Shown here: positions 5,896-35,800 of the stretch, piece by piece
Numbering within the stretch: the first letter of the stretch is position 1
Layout: each line of letters opens with the position of its first letter
From: a virus
Strand: one strand, 5' to 3'
Length of the DNA: 42,736 nucleotides
Virus record (IMG/VR): IMGVR_UViG_3300009034_000089
Span: 1 to 42,736 of that record
Program-made: the position numbers and the translations under genes
Notes under the pieces: generated by a model
The model's input: the letters and a program-made list of their open reading frames with translations, nothing else
Databases searched by the model: none
Told to the model about the DNA's origin: nothing

Positions 5896-7188
5896 TCACC
5901 TCCCAGTTTCCTTCTTAAAAATAATCAAATCTCTGCTTCTCATTAATATTTTCTTCTTCGCTTTTGCCTGTTTGACTTGGAATCCCTTGTATTGCTCTGT
6001 CGATAATGGGCATTGAAATCGCATCTCCACAGTGAACCCGACATCAACGAACCTTTTCACATAATCGTTTATGAAAATCGATTTTGTATAATTATCATAA
6101 TCCAGATAATTGCTCATAAGGAACGCTACACGGCCATCAACTTCCAATATATTAAAACAATCATTGGCAAGTTTGCTGAAGAATTTCATATAACCATTTC
6201 TGTCTTGGCTCGATACAGAATTCTCACCATACTCCTTTTCCTTTTTCTTGTAATATGGTGGGTCGAGGAATATCAAATTGGGTTTTTTCTTCAACTCTGG
6301 GAAACCGTGTTGTATATCGTGCTTTATGATGAAGTCCTTTGCTGGATTGATGTCAAAGCATAGACAATCGATGTTCATTCGCAGGCATGCATCCATTGTT
6401 GTGCCTCCACCTGCCATTGGGTCTATTACCAAATCTCCTTGTTTCGTGAAATAGTATAACACGTTCAAAACAAGTTGACCAGGAATTCTACCTGGATAAT
6501 CAATTCCCATGTCTTCGTCGAGACTTTGGAAATTCCACACGTCATATATTTGTGGTTTGAATTCTGTTGTTTTACCATGAAACTTCATTAAACTCTTATA
6601 TACGTTATGTATAGACAATTTCTCATCTCCAACAATTAAACGAAAAAATTGATTGTTTTTCAAATCGTCTGTGTTTTCAAGAATATACTCTACCTTTATT
6701 AATGTATCTCGTTTAACTTCAGCCAATTTTGCAAGAATGTCGAGAGTTTCACCACTATATCGTAGACCCTCCTTTGAATTCAGAGTAGGGTCTACTGATG
6801 AGTGACAACTACCAGCTTCCATGCGTTCTTGTGCTTCCTCTGCATAATCATCCTTCATCCCCAAAACAGTTATGCATCTTGCAAAGATTGACAGATTTCT
6901 TCGAGCAAGTTGATGTTCACGTATCCATCTTTTGGCAGCCTTTCTGTTTGGAAACCATATTGATTTCGTGACATAAGCTATCCCATGTTTATCGCATATC
7001 GCTTTTCGGTTATGTCCACTGATAAGAGTTACTTCTTTGCCCTCAGTGTTTTTCTCGTCCCATACGACAAGCGGGTCTAAGCATCCATCTCTTTTCAAAC
7101 TTTCCTCTAATTGGGAACGTTGCTTGTCTGTCAATGGGATTAATAAGCTTTGAAATTCTTCATCGATTGTTATTTTTACATTTGTCAT
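5896..7188 (-). CDS. ParB-domain DNA methyltransferase (N4/N6 type, 430 aa)
   Basis: ATG at 7188 with AAAGAGGGTTAGT upstream. Residues about 15-100 form a ParB/sulfiredoxin-like nuclease-fold domain (LVVWDEK ... LISGHNRKAI, with GHNR at 58-61). The C-terminal half is a class I DNA methyltransferase: SAM-binding DPMAGGGT at 256-263 and catalytic DPPY at 309-312. Such fusions are frequent in phages, where the methylase protects viral DNA from host restriction and the ParB part is thought to bind DNA. The order of catalytic motif after SAM motif is of the D12/gamma-like or N4 type; base specificity cannot be read. The downstream gene may be its nuclease. Confidence 0.9.
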   Translation of the reverse strand: MTNVKITIDEEFQSLLIPLTDKQRSQLEESLKRDGCLDPLVVWDEKNTEGKEVTLISGHNRKAICDKHGIAYVTKSIWFPNRKAAKRWIREHQLARRNLSIFARCITVLGMKDDYAEEAQERMEAGSCHSSVDPTLNSKEGLRYSGETLDILAKLAEVKRDTLIKVEYILENTDDLKNNQFFRLIVGDEKLSIHNVYKSLMKFHGKTTEFKPQIYDVWNFQSLDEDMGIDYPGRIPGQLVLNVLYYFTKQGDLVIDPMAGGGTTMDACLRMNIDCLCFDINPAKDFIIKHDIQHGFPELKKKPNLIFLDPPYYKKKEKEYGENSVSSQDRNGYMKFFSKLANDCFNILEVDGRVAFLMSNYLDYDNYTKSIFINDYVKRFVDVGFTVEMRFQCPLSTEQYKGFQVKQAKAKKKILMRSRDLIIFKKETGR

Positions 7189-7199
7189 ACTAACCCTCT

Positions 7200-7352
7200 T
7201 TATCTCCGTGGCAGTCCATTATACATCACAACTCCATATTCAGGCAGGCCCAGCTCGTGCCTCATGCAAAATATGCAGAGTTTTTTCTCACTTAACATGT
7301 ATTTGTTGCCCCACCTACTTCCGCATCCCTTACATTCATAAATCTTCTTCAT
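7200..7352 (-). CDS. Zinc-ribbon microprotein (50 aa)
   Basis: ATG at 7352, overlapping the upstream OB-fold-like gene by 17 bases. CKGC (residues 7-10) and CIFC (26-29) pairs give a zinc ribbon; the tail is neutral with LPEYGVVMYNGLPRR. The function is unknown. It lies between the putative DNA-binding protein and the methyltransferase in one operon. Confidence 0.7.
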   Translation of the reverse strand: MKKIYECKGCGSRWGNKYMLSEKKLCIFCMRHELGLPEYGVVMYNGLPRR

Positions 7353-7881
7353 GTTTCTCTGCATTATCAAATGCTCTATTTAACAGACCGTCTCCCTCTG
7401 ATTTCTTGGTTTCTTCTGGCTTTTCTTTTGGTTCTTTCGCCGCTGGCTCTTGTACCCCTTTTATCTCAGCTTCTACTTCTCCCTTTGCTATCTTTATCAT
7501 TGATTGTATTTTTTCTGGATTCAGTTCTTCTGCCGACATTGTTATGTAACAGCTTACTTTCTTTGGCTCGTATTGGTTCACTTGTATTGTCTTTTCGTAT
7601 CCCACTGATACCTTTGGCATTGTCAATGCTTTCACTATGTCTGCGAAGTTGGACTTGAACTGCTTCTTGCTCTTTATGTTGAAGAACGTTGCTCCGCTGT
7701 CTAGGGTTTGGGTTTCGTATTCGAATTCTATTTCTTCTTCTTCTTTCCAGGGGCATGTCCCGAAGCCACTGAATCTCCTGGTGTCGTCTTTGAGTTTGAC
7801 CCAGAACTTTGCCGTGGCTACTCCTTTTATCTGTGCTGTGTCTGTTCCTGTCTGTTCGACTATTCCCTTTATTTTTTCCAT
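7336..7881 (-). CDS. OB-fold-like putative ssDNA-binding protein (181 aa)
   Basis: ATG at 7881 with AAGGAGGAAATAAC, first gene behind the 7.9-kb promoter. The first 75 residues look like a five-strand barrel (IKGIVEQTG ... AKFWVKLKDD ... FSGFG ... FFNIKS). A second part carries KVSVGYEKTIQVNQYEPKKV, a pattern seen in phage DNA-metabolism proteins. The C-terminus is a flexible Lys/Glu/Pro linker ending in acidic EKHEEDL, as in SSB proteins. A single-strand DNA-binding role in replication or recombination is plausible, but the fold is inferred. Confidence 0.5.
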   Translation of the reverse strand: MEKIKGIVEQTGTDTAQIKGVATAKFWVKLKDDTRRFSGFGTCPWKEEEEIEFEYETQTLDSGATFFNIKSKKQFKSNFADIVKALTMPKVSVGYEKTIQVNQYEPKKVSCYITMSAEELNPEKIQSMIKIAKGEVEAEIKGVQEPAAKEPKEKPEETKKSEGDGLLNRAFDNAEKHEEDL

Positions 7882-7925: not shown

Positions 7926-7951
7926 TTATCGTTACTACGCAATATCTTATA

Positions 7952-8293
7952 TGGGTTTCAAGCTATTTATGGCTTGCACCTTTTTAATGGATTTCATTTA
8001 TCTAGTGGCTCGCAGTTTGTTAATGGTTTACACATTTATAATGGCTCGCAGGTTGAACATGGTTTTCACAAATCACATGGCTTGCATATGATGGTTGGTT
8101 TTCACATCGCTATTGGCTCGCATTGTTGTGGTGGTTTACACCCTTCTTGTGGCTTGCACATCGTTTATGGTCTTCAGTGTTATATTGGCTCACACATCCA
8201 TTGTGGTTTACAGATATCTGTTGGCTCGCATATGGTAATTGGTTTTCATAGGCCGGGTGGCTTGCACCCTTGTATTGGGTTTCAAAGAGCAAA
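7952..8293 (-). repeat. TIGR-like dual-spacer array (19 repeats of 9 bp, 19 spacers of 9 bp)
   Basis: Seen directly: an exact 18-bp period in which a 9-bp repeat is followed by a 9-bp unique sequence, and the repeats alternate between two types, giving a 36-bp period. On the minus strand type A is TGCRAGCCA (nine copies; one reads TGTGAGCCA) and type B is TGNAANCCA (ten copies, from TGAAAACCA to TGTAAACCA). The outermost B repeats, at 7952 and 8276, are both the variant TGAAACCCA. All 19 spacers differ. A decayed A repeat lies at 8294 and contains the stop codon of the upstream gene, so gene and array probably share a transcript. Known TIGR arrays yield RNAs of about 36 nt with two 9-nt spacers, guiding Tas proteins. 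The UG and CA ends of A and B can pair across an internal loop, as in box C/D-type kinked RNAs (inference). It is not CRISPR: the units are far too short. Confidence 0.88.
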
Positions 8294-8296
8294 TGG

Positions 8297-9154
8297 CTAT
8301 GGCATCTTAGCTTCTTCATTTATTTTTACCGCATCTTTCCATGTTTCGTAGTGGCAGTGCTTTCCCTTGCCGATTATCCAGGGTTTTGTCCGCTCTTGGC
8401 CTGTCAACTCCTTGGCGCAGTCCCAGTAGTGCTGAAGGAACCTCTTGACTGCGTACCTTCTCGCTCTCAGGTCTGCATGCAATTTGTTCTTTGGCTTGTT
8501 GTCGTCTTTCCTGTCCAATTCCTTTGCCTTCTTCTTGTCATACATGTCCCTGTAATATGGCGTTCTTTGCTTTATGAAGCTGTCGCTGATTTTCCAGCAC
8601 AATGTTCTCAGTTGCGGATTCCAGTCCAGCTTTTCGCCCTTTCTTCTCTTTGGAGCTTCGCTGTGGGAATCAACCTCTATCACATGCATTCCGCAATGCT
8701 TCCACAACGATGATACCATCTTGTACCTTTCGCAATATCCGAACCACTTCAATAGGTTGGCGCTAAGCACTGGGCCGATTCCCTTGATTCTGCCAAGGTA
8801 TTTCTTGTATATCTCTTCCTGGTTTATGTATCTCATCATCTGTATCTTGTATCTTTTCTCTGTATCACTTTCCTTGTTGGCTATTTCCACGATGTTGATT
8901 AGGTATTCTAATTCCTTGTCTGTCAGCTTTTTCTCTTTTTCCATCTTCCTCAATAGGTTTATTATCTGTTTGTCATTGTAATTCTTGTCATAGTTTGCCA
9001 TTTCTTTCTTTTCTATCACTTCATCGAACGGGACTCCTTCGTTTTTTCTCCATACTATGTCTCTTATCCTGTTCATGGAGCCTATTCTAACCTGTTGGTG
9101 GTCGTAGTATGCTCCAGCTACTATCCTGCCGATTCTTCTTAATATGTCACTCAT
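8297..9154 (-). CDS. tasA: TasA-like protein: IS110 C-terminal/Nop-like domain, no nuclease (285 aa)
   Basis: ATG at 9154 with AAGGAGGCGATAAC. The N-terminus (residues 1-40, RRIGRIVAGAYYDHQQ ... NRIRDIVW) is a helical region, followed by a charged coiled coil (60-105). Residues about 121-245 match the C-terminal domain of IS110/IS116/IS902 transposases: helix-hairpin-helix GRIKGIGPVLSANLL, a Trp-Lys-His-Cys-Gly segment (151-155), basic KRRKGEKLDWNPQLR, and ARRYAVKRFLQHYW. The DEDD/RuvC-like catalytic half of IS110 is absent and no HNH or RuvC motif is seen. In the TIGR-Tas family this domain is Nop-like and binds the guide RNA; nuclease-less members are called TasA. The array follows the stop by a few bases. 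A transposase remnant is unlikely because there are no IS ends and the frame is intact. Expected role: RNA-guided binding without cleavage. Confidence 0.78.
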   Translation of the reverse strand: MSDILRRIGRIVAGAYYDHQQVRIGSMNRIRDIVWRKNEGVPFDEVIEKKEMANYDKNYNDKQIINLLRKMEKEKKLTDKELEYLINIVEIANKESDTEKRYKIQMMRYINQEEIYKKYLGRIKGIGPVLSANLLKWFGYCERYKMVSSLWKHCGMHVIEVDSHSEAPKRRKGEKLDWNPQLRTLCWKISDSFIKQRTPYYRDMYDKKKAKELDRKDDNKPKNKLHADLRARRYAVKRFLQHYWDCAKELTGQERTKPWIIGKGKHCHYETWKDAVKINEEAKMP

Positions 9155-33379: not shown

Positions 33380-35755
33380 TTAATCGGGCCTGAATACTAA
33401 TCTCGACCGGCAATTAGGATGCGCGGGCGGGCTGAACCCTTCCCAGTCCTTGTAATTGAACTTGTTACCGATTGGCTGTTCCTCGCCGTTCAGATGCCTG
33501 CATATCTCTGATGTCCTTCCATCCAGCTTGGCTACCCATTCCACTTTTCCTTTCATTCCTGACTGCATGTATCCTTCCAGCTTCCCGGCGTTTTCTGCTA
33601 GCGCTATCTCGGTCCTGGCTATGGTGTTTGCCCTGGTCTCAGCCACGTCGAATATCTTGGTTATCCTAGATTTCAGCTTCGGTATGCTCTCTCCCTGTAT
33701 CAGGCCGGTTTCTAGTTCCTTTCTCAGCTTTGATTTTATCTCTTCTCCTAAATCCCTGACATAGTCCAATGCGCGCCTCTCGATGAAGTTCATGGTGTTC
33801 CTGTTGGGTATGAAGTTCATGTCGAAATCCACTTCTATGCTGTCCAGTGATTTGAGGTAGGCTTCCTCAATGGCTTTCCGCACGGGTTCTTCCACTGTTT
33901 CCAGATTGATTATGTTCTTTAACTCCTGTATCGTGTCTTGGTCCAGCGCCTTGATTTCTTTCAGTTTGTCCTCGGCGGCGAACAGTTTCAATCTCTCCTT
34001 TATCTGTTTCTCCTGGAATTTGAACAGCTTCTTTAGTATCTTGTCTATCGCGGGCACTTCGAACTCTCCCATAATCAGCGGGCTTGTTATGTTGAATGCT
34101 TTTTGTCTGGGCCATTTTCCTGTTATCTTCTTATGCAGGGAGGCGCAGTACGCTTTTGGGTTCTTCTTGCCCTTGTTGGCTCTCACGCACGCATCGAAAT
34201 CCGCATACTTTCCGAATGGCTTTGTCTCTATGGCTTTCTTTTCTGTCTCCTTTTCCGTTTCTTCTTGTTCTTCGCCGAACCTTCCGAATCTCCCGAATCC
34301 TCCGAATGGGCTTGGTTGTGTCCCGCCTAGTTTATCTCCGCCCTCGACTGGTTCTAAGCCTTGTTCTTCCCTTATCTCGTTTGGTGTTCTCAGTTTGTTT
34401 CTTATCTGTAGCTGGTACAGCTCGTGCTTTTGAAGGTCCTCGTTGATGTCGTACATGTCGAACTGGAACTTGACATCGTCTATGCCTGAGACAACATCCT
34501 CGTCTTTCATTCCGGCGTTGATTACCACGCCGTTCTCGAACTCAGGGATTATCTCAGTGTTTATGTGGTATTCGAGCAGCTTCAAGATAGGCCGTATGGC
34601 TTTCCGTCTGAAGACTCTGCTCTGAATGACCTCTGTGGCCCTGTTGCTTGACTCGGTAAAACCAAGCTCAGAAGGTGTGACTCCGAAGCAGGCCCACAAC
34701 ACTTTTGAGAACCACTGGGACTGGCTTATGAGTTCCAACTCTGCATTTGAGAAACCAATCCTCTCGAACTTTCCTTCCTGATTTATGACAGGCATGTGGT
34801 AGAATCTCTTCCTGTAATCTCCCACTTCATTTTTTATCCTTGTGGCTTCCCTCCATTTCTCTGAGAACAATCTTATGTCCGGCTCGTTCGCGCCAATCAG
34901 CTGGAATACTCCCTTGGGTATGTTGTTGTCGGTGTAGTATTCTAAATTGTGGTCTATGCCGTAGACGAGCATCTGCACCGTGTCAAGGCAGATTTCAACC
35001 GGGCTTCTGCCGTATATGGAATCCGGTCTGGGGTTCCTTTGGATGTATACTATTTCCCTCCTGCCGAACGGCATCGGTCTAGCGCCGGTTATCCATCCGT
35101 ACTGGAAATAGGCCGCTTGCTCGGCCACCTGGTTCAGCGTCATCATGGCTTGCTGTCTTGGCTGGCCGGTGCTTGTCCAGAAATCCGGGTTGTTCCATGT
35201 GCCGGCGAAGTCGGCCGTGATTATGTCGACCTTGTTCTGGAACGTTCCGAATATATCGACGTTTATGGTGAACGTGCCGCCGTCCCTCACATAGAGTTCC
35301 CTCATCTGACCAGCTATATCAAAGACTTTCACCCACACGCCGGAGTCTATCGTCAGGATATCCCTTATTATTTTTTTCAGCTGGGAACCGAACGACTCCT
35401 TGTTGATGTTTGGGTTGTCGAAGAATTCCTTCACCGATTTGCAGTGTTCCTCGCTTGAGCCGGTGCTTTCGCCTGGCTCGTTATCCTCTTTTGGAACTAT
35501 ATTCCATTCGACTGCCATTATCTCGTCTATGATTGTGGATATGCACATCTCGACGAAAGGGGTTGCAGCCAGTCTTCTTTGTTCTGGTATGTCGATGAAA
35601 CGGGGGTAGCCGAATGGCGGCTTGTATAGAAATTTGGGAATGACAGCCTTGTATATGCTCTTGTTTACATCCACTGTCCTGTCTACTGCGAATCTCGTGT
35701 TTTGCAATCCCAGCGCCGATGTTATCTTGGCCAAGACGTTTTGTGCTACTGGCAT
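33380..35755 (-). CDS. Portal protein fused to MuF-type C-terminal domain (791 aa)
   Basis: Start at ATG 35755; a TTG at 35776 is in frame. Residues about 30-430 are a phage portal (FVEMCISTIIDEIMAVEWNI ... RREIVYIQRNPRPDSIYGRSPVE ... GVTPSELGFTESSNRAT). Residues about 560-620 form a charged linker, and the last ~130 residues are a Phage_Mu_F/MuF domain (IARTEIALAENAGKLEGYM ... LDGRTSEICRHLNGE ... PPAHPNCRSRLVF). MuF proteins help package internal proteins. The fusion means portal and MuF parts are made as one 12-mer ring. Confidence 0.9.
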   Translation of the reverse strand: MPVAQNVLAKITSALGLQNTRFAVDRTVDVNKSIYKAVIPKFLYKPPFGYPRFIDIPEQRRLAATPFVEMCISTIIDEIMAVEWNIVPKEDNEPGESTGSSEEHCKSVKEFFDNPNINKESFGSQLKKIIRDILTIDSGVWVKVFDIAGQMRELYVRDGGTFTINVDIFGTFQNKVDIITADFAGTWNNPDFWTSTGQPRQQAMMTLNQVAEQAAYFQYGWITGARPMPFGRREIVYIQRNPRPDSIYGRSPVEICLDTVQMLVYGIDHNLEYYTDNNIPKGVFQLIGANEPDIRLFSEKWREATRIKNEVGDYRKRFYHMPVINQEGKFERIGFSNAELELISQSQWFSKVLWACFGVTPSELGFTESSNRATEVIQSRVFRRKAIRPILKLLEYHINTEIIPEFENGVVINAGMKDEDVVSGIDDVKFQFDMYDINEDLQKHELYQLQIRNKLRTPNEIREEQGLEPVEGGDKLGGTQPSPFGGFGRFGRFGEEQEETEKETEKKAIETKPFGKYADFDACVRANKGKKNPKAYCASLHKKITGKWPRQKAFNITSPLIMGEFEVPAIDKILKKLFKFQEKQIKERLKLFAAEDKLKEIKALDQDTIQELKNIINLETVEEPVRKAIEEAYLKSLDSIEVDFDMNFIPNRNTMNFIERRALDYVRDLGEEIKSKLRKELETGLIQGESIPKLKSRITKIFDVAETRANTIARTEIALAENAGKLEGYMQSGMKGKVEWVAKLDGRTSEICRHLNGEEQPIGNKFNYKDWEGFSPPAHPNCRSRLVFRPD

Positions 35756-35800
35756 AAGTATGAACGTTTCTTCCAATTCGTGATTGATTGTTGGAATGAC

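What the first reader, a model, noticed from the sequence alone, without database searches (positions are those of the whole stretch)
7952..8293. TIGR-like dual-guide array in an archaeal virus
Seen: strictly alternating 9-bp repeats of two types with exactly 9-bp, all-different spacers, 19 of each, no slippage over 342 bp. Known: TIGR arrays give about 36-nt RNAs with two 9-nt spacers that guide Tas proteins. Inference: this is a working guide locus carried by a tailed archaeal virus. The perfect period and unrelated spacers argue against a coding repeat. The repeats are unusual in that the outermost B copies match each other (TGAAACCCA) but differ from the inner ones, and the last A copy has decayed into the tas stop codon.
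Basis: partly seen in the sequence, partly recalled or inferred. Interest (0 to 1): 0.96.

Follow-up and report, generated by a model that had tools for sequence, protein, structure and literature searches.

The report
Viral TIGR-TasA dual-guide RNA locus
A tailed virus, probably of an archaeon, carries a real TIGR-Tas system: a small RNA-binding protein gene followed by an array of ten two-part guide RNAs that should steer the protein to matching DNA; the system is a divergent member of a family described in 2025, and what it targets is still unknown.

Summary
Read on the minus strand, 7938-8298 holds 19 complete 9-nt repeats at an exact 18-nt period (10 loop, 9 edge). A 5'-half edge and a 3'-half edge bound them, giving ten edge-A-loop-B guides. 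All 19 repeats keep UG (box D) and CCA (box C). The longest such run in 20 shuffles was 2.

The adjacent 285-aa protein passes NCBI's TIGR_Tas model (156.6 bits, cut-off 100). It matches TasR by sequence (1.4e-32), and its predicted fold hits only TasR and TasH at E <= 0.001. It has no detectable nuclease domain, so it is TasA-like. Searching IMG/VR with the window's repeat motif gave 25 contigs, all with such arrays; 22 of the held stretches also carry a tas gene.

Two corrections. The 'decayed' outer copy is the normal 5'-truncated edge repeat, whose overlap with the tas stop codon recurs across the Tas tree. The archaeal host is only suggested, by codon usage.

Spacer targets remain unknown. 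In related marine arrays, A-B pairs are inherited together (76-90%) more than B-A neighbours (27-32%), so the dual-spacer cassette is the evolving unit. New member of a known kind.

The parts
8297..9154 (-). tasA-like gene, 285 aa (P0001), TIGR-associated Nop-domain protein without a detectable nuclease domain
   Evidence: NCBIfam NF052498 TIGR_Tas_endo 156.6 bits vs cut-off 100; phrog_4285 3.3e-38; PDB 9mty TasR 1.4e-32, TasH 2.1e-10; predicted fold matches TasR/TasH; strong SD GGAGG
7938..8298 (-). whole TIGR array: ten edge-A-loop-B units, in the direction of and directly downstream of tas
8294..8298 (-). 5'-truncated edge repeat AGCCA (box C half); overlaps the tas stop codon TAG at 8297-8299
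   Evidence: same placement in other lineages
7952..8284 (-). 19 complete repeats: loop repeats at 7952+36k (k=0-9), edge repeats at 7970+36k (k=0-8), all TG....CCA; edge repeats keep C/U at position 3 and G at position 6
7938..7941 (-). 3'-truncated edge repeat TGCG (box D half), after a 10-nt rather than 9-nt spacing
   Evidence: sequence
7336..7881 (-). 181-aa protein of unknown function downstream of the array, no family match of note; neighbour only
5896..7188 (-). 430-aa ParB-like N-terminus plus N6/N4 DNA methyltransferase; neighbour, role in the system not shown

Best explanation
This is a TIGR-Tas locus of the nuclease-less (TasA-like) kind in a tailed virus. One transcript carries tas and then the array. 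The Tas dimer binds box C (CCA) and box D (UG) motifs, and a host RNase cuts within the edge repeats to release ten ~36-nt tigRNAs. Each RNP unwinds an 18-bp DNA site in which spacer A pairs with one strand and spacer B with the other (site = A followed by the reverse complement of B), bends it and stays bound. In the virus this most likely blocks transcription or replication of rival mobile elements or of host genes. Shown here: anatomy, family membership, predicted fold, and co-inheritance of A and B as a cassette in relatives. Inferred from the published TasR/TasH/TasA work: processing, DNA binding and target geometry. Inferred with less support: the biological role.
For: Array anatomy and the non-chance run. 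Curated family match above cut-off; PDB sequence matches to TasR/TasH; AF2 model (pLDDT 80) whose only hits at E<=0.001 are TasR/TasH, with IS110-type recombinases next. The tree puts it in the array-bearing clade (100/100) and with L006 and L012 (97/93). Of 72 viral relatives, over 40 carry period-36 dual-repeat arrays near the match. The window's own repeat motif retrieves 25 contigs, all with arrays, 22 with a tas gene. In marine arrays A-B pairs across the loop are kept in 76-90% of comparisons, B-to-next-A across the edge in 27-32%. Half-edges keep exactly G+CCA at the 5' end and UG+C at the 3' end. Published mechanism: PMC12045711.
Against: No expression data and no natural target: no site in the window or in the G060 chromosome; three window targets scanned in IMG/VR gave one hit, in a phage with quite different codon usage, consistent with chance. 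The Tas sits on a long branch (1.86). No close relative was found, so conservation of this particular array could not be tested.
Confidence: 0.88

Rival explanations
1. A true TIGR array that is no longer active (decaying relic).
For: The last spacer is 10 nt, loop repeats vary in their middle, and Tas is very divergent. A related chromosomal locus in G060 is visibly decayed.
Against: All 19 repeats keep both box motifs and the period is perfect. The tas frame is open with a strong SD. G060 shows what decay looks like: spacers of 7-11 nt and many broken boxes.
Confidence: 0.08
2. Guides that act on the virus's own genome or host genes, for regulation, integration or segregation, rather than on competitors.
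For: TasA systems are sometimes next to parB-like genes and DNA bending was proposed as an aid to integration (PMC12045711). Here a ParB-like/methyltransferase gene lies downstream.
Against: No site in the virus itself with 3 or fewer mismatches under the A+rc(B) rule, and scores equal the swapped-spacer controls. The host genome is unknown, so host targets stay open. ParB-like sequence of this kind was found near tas in only two relatives.
Confidence: 0.25
3. A box C/D sRNA (RNA-methylation guide) array or an IS110-type bridge-RNA transposon rather than TIGR.
For: All share the Nop fold and box C/D logic; Pfam calls the protein Transposase_20.
Against: NCBIfam IS110 model 16 bits vs cut-off 140, TIGR_Tas 156.6 vs 100. 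No DEDD or RuvC-like N-terminal domain found. No Rfam hit in the window. The array RNA is no more structured than shuffles, z=+1.0, as expected for dual-repeat rather than stem-loop guides.
Confidence: 0.02
4. A protein-coding repeat (the 18-nt period keeps the frame).
For: One plus-strand frame is open through the array (125-aa ORF 7974-8351).
Against: An open frame at least this clean occurs in 33% of spacer shuffles; 20 of 45 related arrays have one, mostly as expected. Related arrays contain 10-11 nt spacers and their spacer differences show no codon periodicity.
Confidence: 0.01

Closest known systems
TIGR-TasA systems (Faure et al. 2025, PMC12045711), e.g. Flavonifractor plautii FpTIGR
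   Same: Solo Nop-type protein without a nuclease domain; dual 9-nt repeats and 9-nt spacers; array beside tas; 5'- and 3'-truncated edge repeats
   Different: Divergent sequence on a long branch; tailed virus with archaeal-like codon usage; tas stop codon overlaps the first half-edge, which the main text of the paper does not mention (text search)
Thermoproteota TaTasR (PDB 9mty)
   Same: Closest solved structure by sequence and fold (1.4e-32, Foldseek 4.5e-11); same UG...CCA boxes in edge and loop
   Different: TaTasR has an N-terminal RuvC nuclease; the window protein has only about 40 low-confidence residues before the coiled coil
Salicola phage CGphi29 TasH (PDB 21kl, 9w04)
   Same: Nop/coiled-coil body and array beside the gene (L003)
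   Different: TasH has an HNH domain; none detected in the window protein
IMG/VR contigs L006/L007 with the same array (3300033148_003185, 3300033141_001901)
   Same: Closest Tas found (37-42% identity over aligned parts) with the same edge/loop consensus TGCGAGCCA/TGAAAACCA
   Different: Array lies upstream of tas and has 39 repeats; no other homologous gene was found in the stretch held

Membership tests
TIGR-Tas | Array of two alternating 8-12-nt repeats separated by ~9-nt unique spacers | tested here: met
   19 repeats of 9 nt, spacers of 9 nt, all different
TIGR-Tas | Edge and loop repeats carry box D (UG) and box C (CCA) | tested here: met
   19 of 19 repeats are TG....CCA
TIGR-Tas | Extra pairing position in the edge repeat (G-C, G-U or A-U) | tested here: met
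   Position 3 is C in 8 and T in 1 of 9 edges, position 6 is G in all; both half-edges keep the needed base
TIGR-Tas | 5'-truncated first edge and 3'-truncated last edge, then a terminator | tested here: inconclusive
   AGCCA at 8294-8298 and TGCG at 7938-7941 fit; no rho-independent terminator on that strand was found
TIGR-Tas | Adjacent Tas protein with Nop/IS110-like RNA-binding domain and coiled coil | tested here: met
TIGR-Tas | Tas belongs to the clade associated with dual-repeat arrays | tested here: met
   Tree support 100/100 for the array-bearing group; window with L006 and L012 97/93, long branch noted
TasA subtype | No HNH or RuvC nuclease domain | tested here: met
   285 aa; residues 1-122 match no nuclease in the PDB; no nuclease domain model in Pfam or NCBIfam scans
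TIGR-Tas | Processing into 36-nt tigRNAs bound by Tas | not testable with these tools
   needs small-RNA sequencing
TIGR-Tas | tigRNA-guided binding to an 18-bp site A+rc(B) | not testable with these tools
   no natural site found; needs binding assay
IS110 transposase | DEDD catalytic domain and bridge RNA | tested here: not met
   NF033542 16.3 bits vs cut-off 140; no N-terminal catalytic domain found

The most novel reading that the evidence does not exclude
The tas stop codon and the first half-edge repeat form a built-in feedback switch. Cutting the first tigRNA out of the transcript trims the tas mRNA at its stop codon, so guide maturation limits Tas synthesis. Viruses also trade whole edge-A-loop-B cassettes by recombination in the edge repeats, giving array turnover without any adaptation machinery.
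Probability: 0.2. Interest if true: 0.65.

Novelty: new member of a known kind. Interest (0 to 1): 0.4.

Why it matters
TIGR-Tas systems are compact RNA-guided DNA binders whose targets, spacer origin and array turnover are stated open questions (PMC12045711). This locus adds a divergent virus-borne TasA. The comparison it prompted gives two testable general points: dual-spacer cassettes are the inherited unit, which supports tandem use of A and B in nature, and the tas stop codon is repeatedly built into the first half-edge repeat.

Tried and rejected
Self-targeting of the virus: best matches have 4-5 mismatches, same as swapped-spacer controls. Targets in a chromosome (G060) that holds a decayed relative of the locus: same as controls. 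IMG/VR scans with three window targets and one conserved marine target: one exact hit (unit 1) in phage contig L220, inside a methyltransferase-like gene. L220 has different codon usage and no second target, so I take it as chance, about what an 18-mer should give in a collection of this size (my estimate). Cross-targeting among 339 units of related arrays and 2 Mb of held sequence: no excess over controls. Idea that homologous spacers drift by codons because they track coding targets: no 3-base periodicity. Host by provirus: the Tas search of genome contigs gave one truncated hit in a contig labelled Halovenus that looks like bacterial phage DNA and may be misbinned; portal relatives in that phylum are only distant. 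Search for sister viruses by terminase: best in that scan 34% (L079); L228, found later by repeat motif, 35%.

Full report
Observation. On the minus strand the array runs, 5' to 3', from 8298 to 7938 directly after the tas gene. It has 19 complete 9-nt repeats at an exact 18-nt period, alternating loop (TGAAAACCA-like, 10) and edge (TGCRAGCCA-like, 9). Every one starts TG and ends CCA. The longest such run in 20 shuffles of the window was 2, and at eight other periods between 16 and 24 on both strands it was 2. Half-edges close both ends: AGCCA on the 5' side, sharing two bases with the tas stop codon TAG, and TGCG on the 3' side. This gives ten units with 20 different spacers. The array RNA is not predicted to be structured beyond shuffles (z = +1.0), and Rfam finds nothing in the window.

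The protein. P0001 (285 aa) matches phrog_4285 (3.3e-38, labelled transposase). It matches TasR (PDB 9mty, 1.4e-32) and TasH (2.1e-10) in the PDB, and NCBIfam NF052498 TIGR_Tas_endo at 156.6 bits against a cut-off of 100, while the IS110 model gives 16.3 bits against 140. Pfam only says Transposase_20, as expected from the shared RNA-binding fold. An AF2 model from 23 sequences (pLDDT 80, pTM 0.75) shows two long helices and a helical C-terminal domain. All eleven PDB matches at E<=0.001 are TasR or TasH; IS110-type recombinases follow. The first ~40 residues are low confidence, and residues 1-122 match no nuclease in the PDB. It is therefore TasA-like, despite the word endonuclease in the NCBI model name.

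Relatives. A four-sequence Tas alignment retrieved 72 viral relatives. Array parsing found period-36 dual-repeat arrays in 44 held loci besides the window, two of them phage records. In a tree the window falls in the array-bearing group (100/100) beside L006 and L012 (97/93), on a long branch (1.86) whose exact place is unsure. A blind test used only the window's repeat motif (TGCRAGCCA-N9-TGWAAACCA-N9-TG). It hit 25 IMG/VR contigs; all parsed as dual-repeat arrays and 22 of the held stretches also contain a Tas gene. Two of the 25 (L233, L243) are the L006 and L007 contigs again. The best Tas identity is 37-42%; no close sister virus was found.

Arrangement. In other lineages spread over the tree the tas stop codon also lies within or against the first truncated edge: TGA|GCCA in the L017 group, TAA|CCA in L015/L066, TAA|GCCA in L011, TAG|CCA in L054, TAA|CCA in L037, TAG|TCA in L046. 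A word search of the main text of PMC12045711 found no mention of a stop codon. It implies one transcript for tas and array; any regulatory effect is speculation.

Inheritance of guides. Twelve distinct marine arrays (from 15 contigs; that of L030 parses poorly) hold 123 distinct units in 87 families, many shared in mosaic order. Between arrays, spacer B is the same for a given spacer A in 103 of 135 comparisons (76%) with exact spacers, and 173 of 193 (90%) allowing one mismatch. The next A after a given B is the same in only 43 of 135 (32%) and 48 of 180 (27%). With a two-mismatch threshold both values fall (62% and 18%) but keep the order. The comparisons are not independent, yet the contrast fits edge-A-loop-B as the exchanged cassette and hence paired use of A and B, as published for TasR. 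Differences among homologous units show no codon periodicity.

Targets. The target rule (A followed by rc(B), 18 bp) follows from the 8-nt 3' overhangs reported for TasR. No window unit has a site in its own genome better than swapped-spacer controls, nor in G060. Three window targets and one marine target were scanned exactly in IMG/VR; one hit was found and is judged chance. Targets remain unknown. That a virus array avoids its own genome fits use against other DNA but does not prove it.

Host. The window encodes portal, terminase and tail proteins, so it is a tailed virus. Archaeal host: Ile is ATA in 65% and Arg is AGA/AGG in 80-82% of codons, which is archaeal-like, and terminase matches include haloarchaeal and Methanofastidiosa viruses among bacterial phages. 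This is suggestive only; some bacteria share such codon use. A related Tas with a decayed array lies in a 987-kb contig of G060, next to hydrogenase genes.

Function. By analogy with published TasA, TasR and TasH, Tas should bind ~36-nt tigRNAs and then hold 18-bp DNA sites unwound and bent, without cutting. Blocking rival elements is the leading role; action on host genes is open; action on its own genome lacks support. The ParB-like/methyltransferase gene downstream (5896-7188) recalls the tasParB association reported for TasA, but it is separated by another gene and only two relatives carry similar sequence near tas, so I do not count it as part of the system.

Verdict. Real, well supported as TIGR-Tas, and a divergent new member of a known kind. 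Expression, activity, host and targets are not established.

Noticed in passing
L012:3818-4882: A 354-aa Tas relative grouped with the window and L006 has Cys-rich, zinc-finger-like inserts, and no period-36 array was found in the stretch held.
   Followed up: no
L162 (G060:C1:265000-284999), array at G060:C1:283841-284352: A chromosomal TIGR-Tas locus beside hydrogenase maturation genes, with the window's repeat type but many broken boxes and spacers of 7-11 nt: looks like a decaying array.
   Followed up: partly
L017, L015/L066, L011, L054, L037, L046, L035 and window 8294-8299: The tas stop codon is repeatedly embedded in, or abuts, the first 5'-truncated edge repeat of the array.
   Followed up: partly
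L016-L028, L069: Marine viral arrays share units in mosaic order, with point changes in single spacers: material for studying TIGR array evolution.
   Followed up: partly
window 7974-8351 (+): A 125-aa open frame runs antisense through the array; expected by chance in a third of spacer shuffles.
   Followed up: yes
window 33380-35776 (-): Portal protein with a fused C-terminal MuF-like head morphogenesis domain (798 aa).
   Followed up: no
L078 (PUMG01000254.1): A contig binned as Halovenus carries a truncated Tas gene at its end and looks like bacterial phage DNA: possible mis-binning.
   Followed up: no
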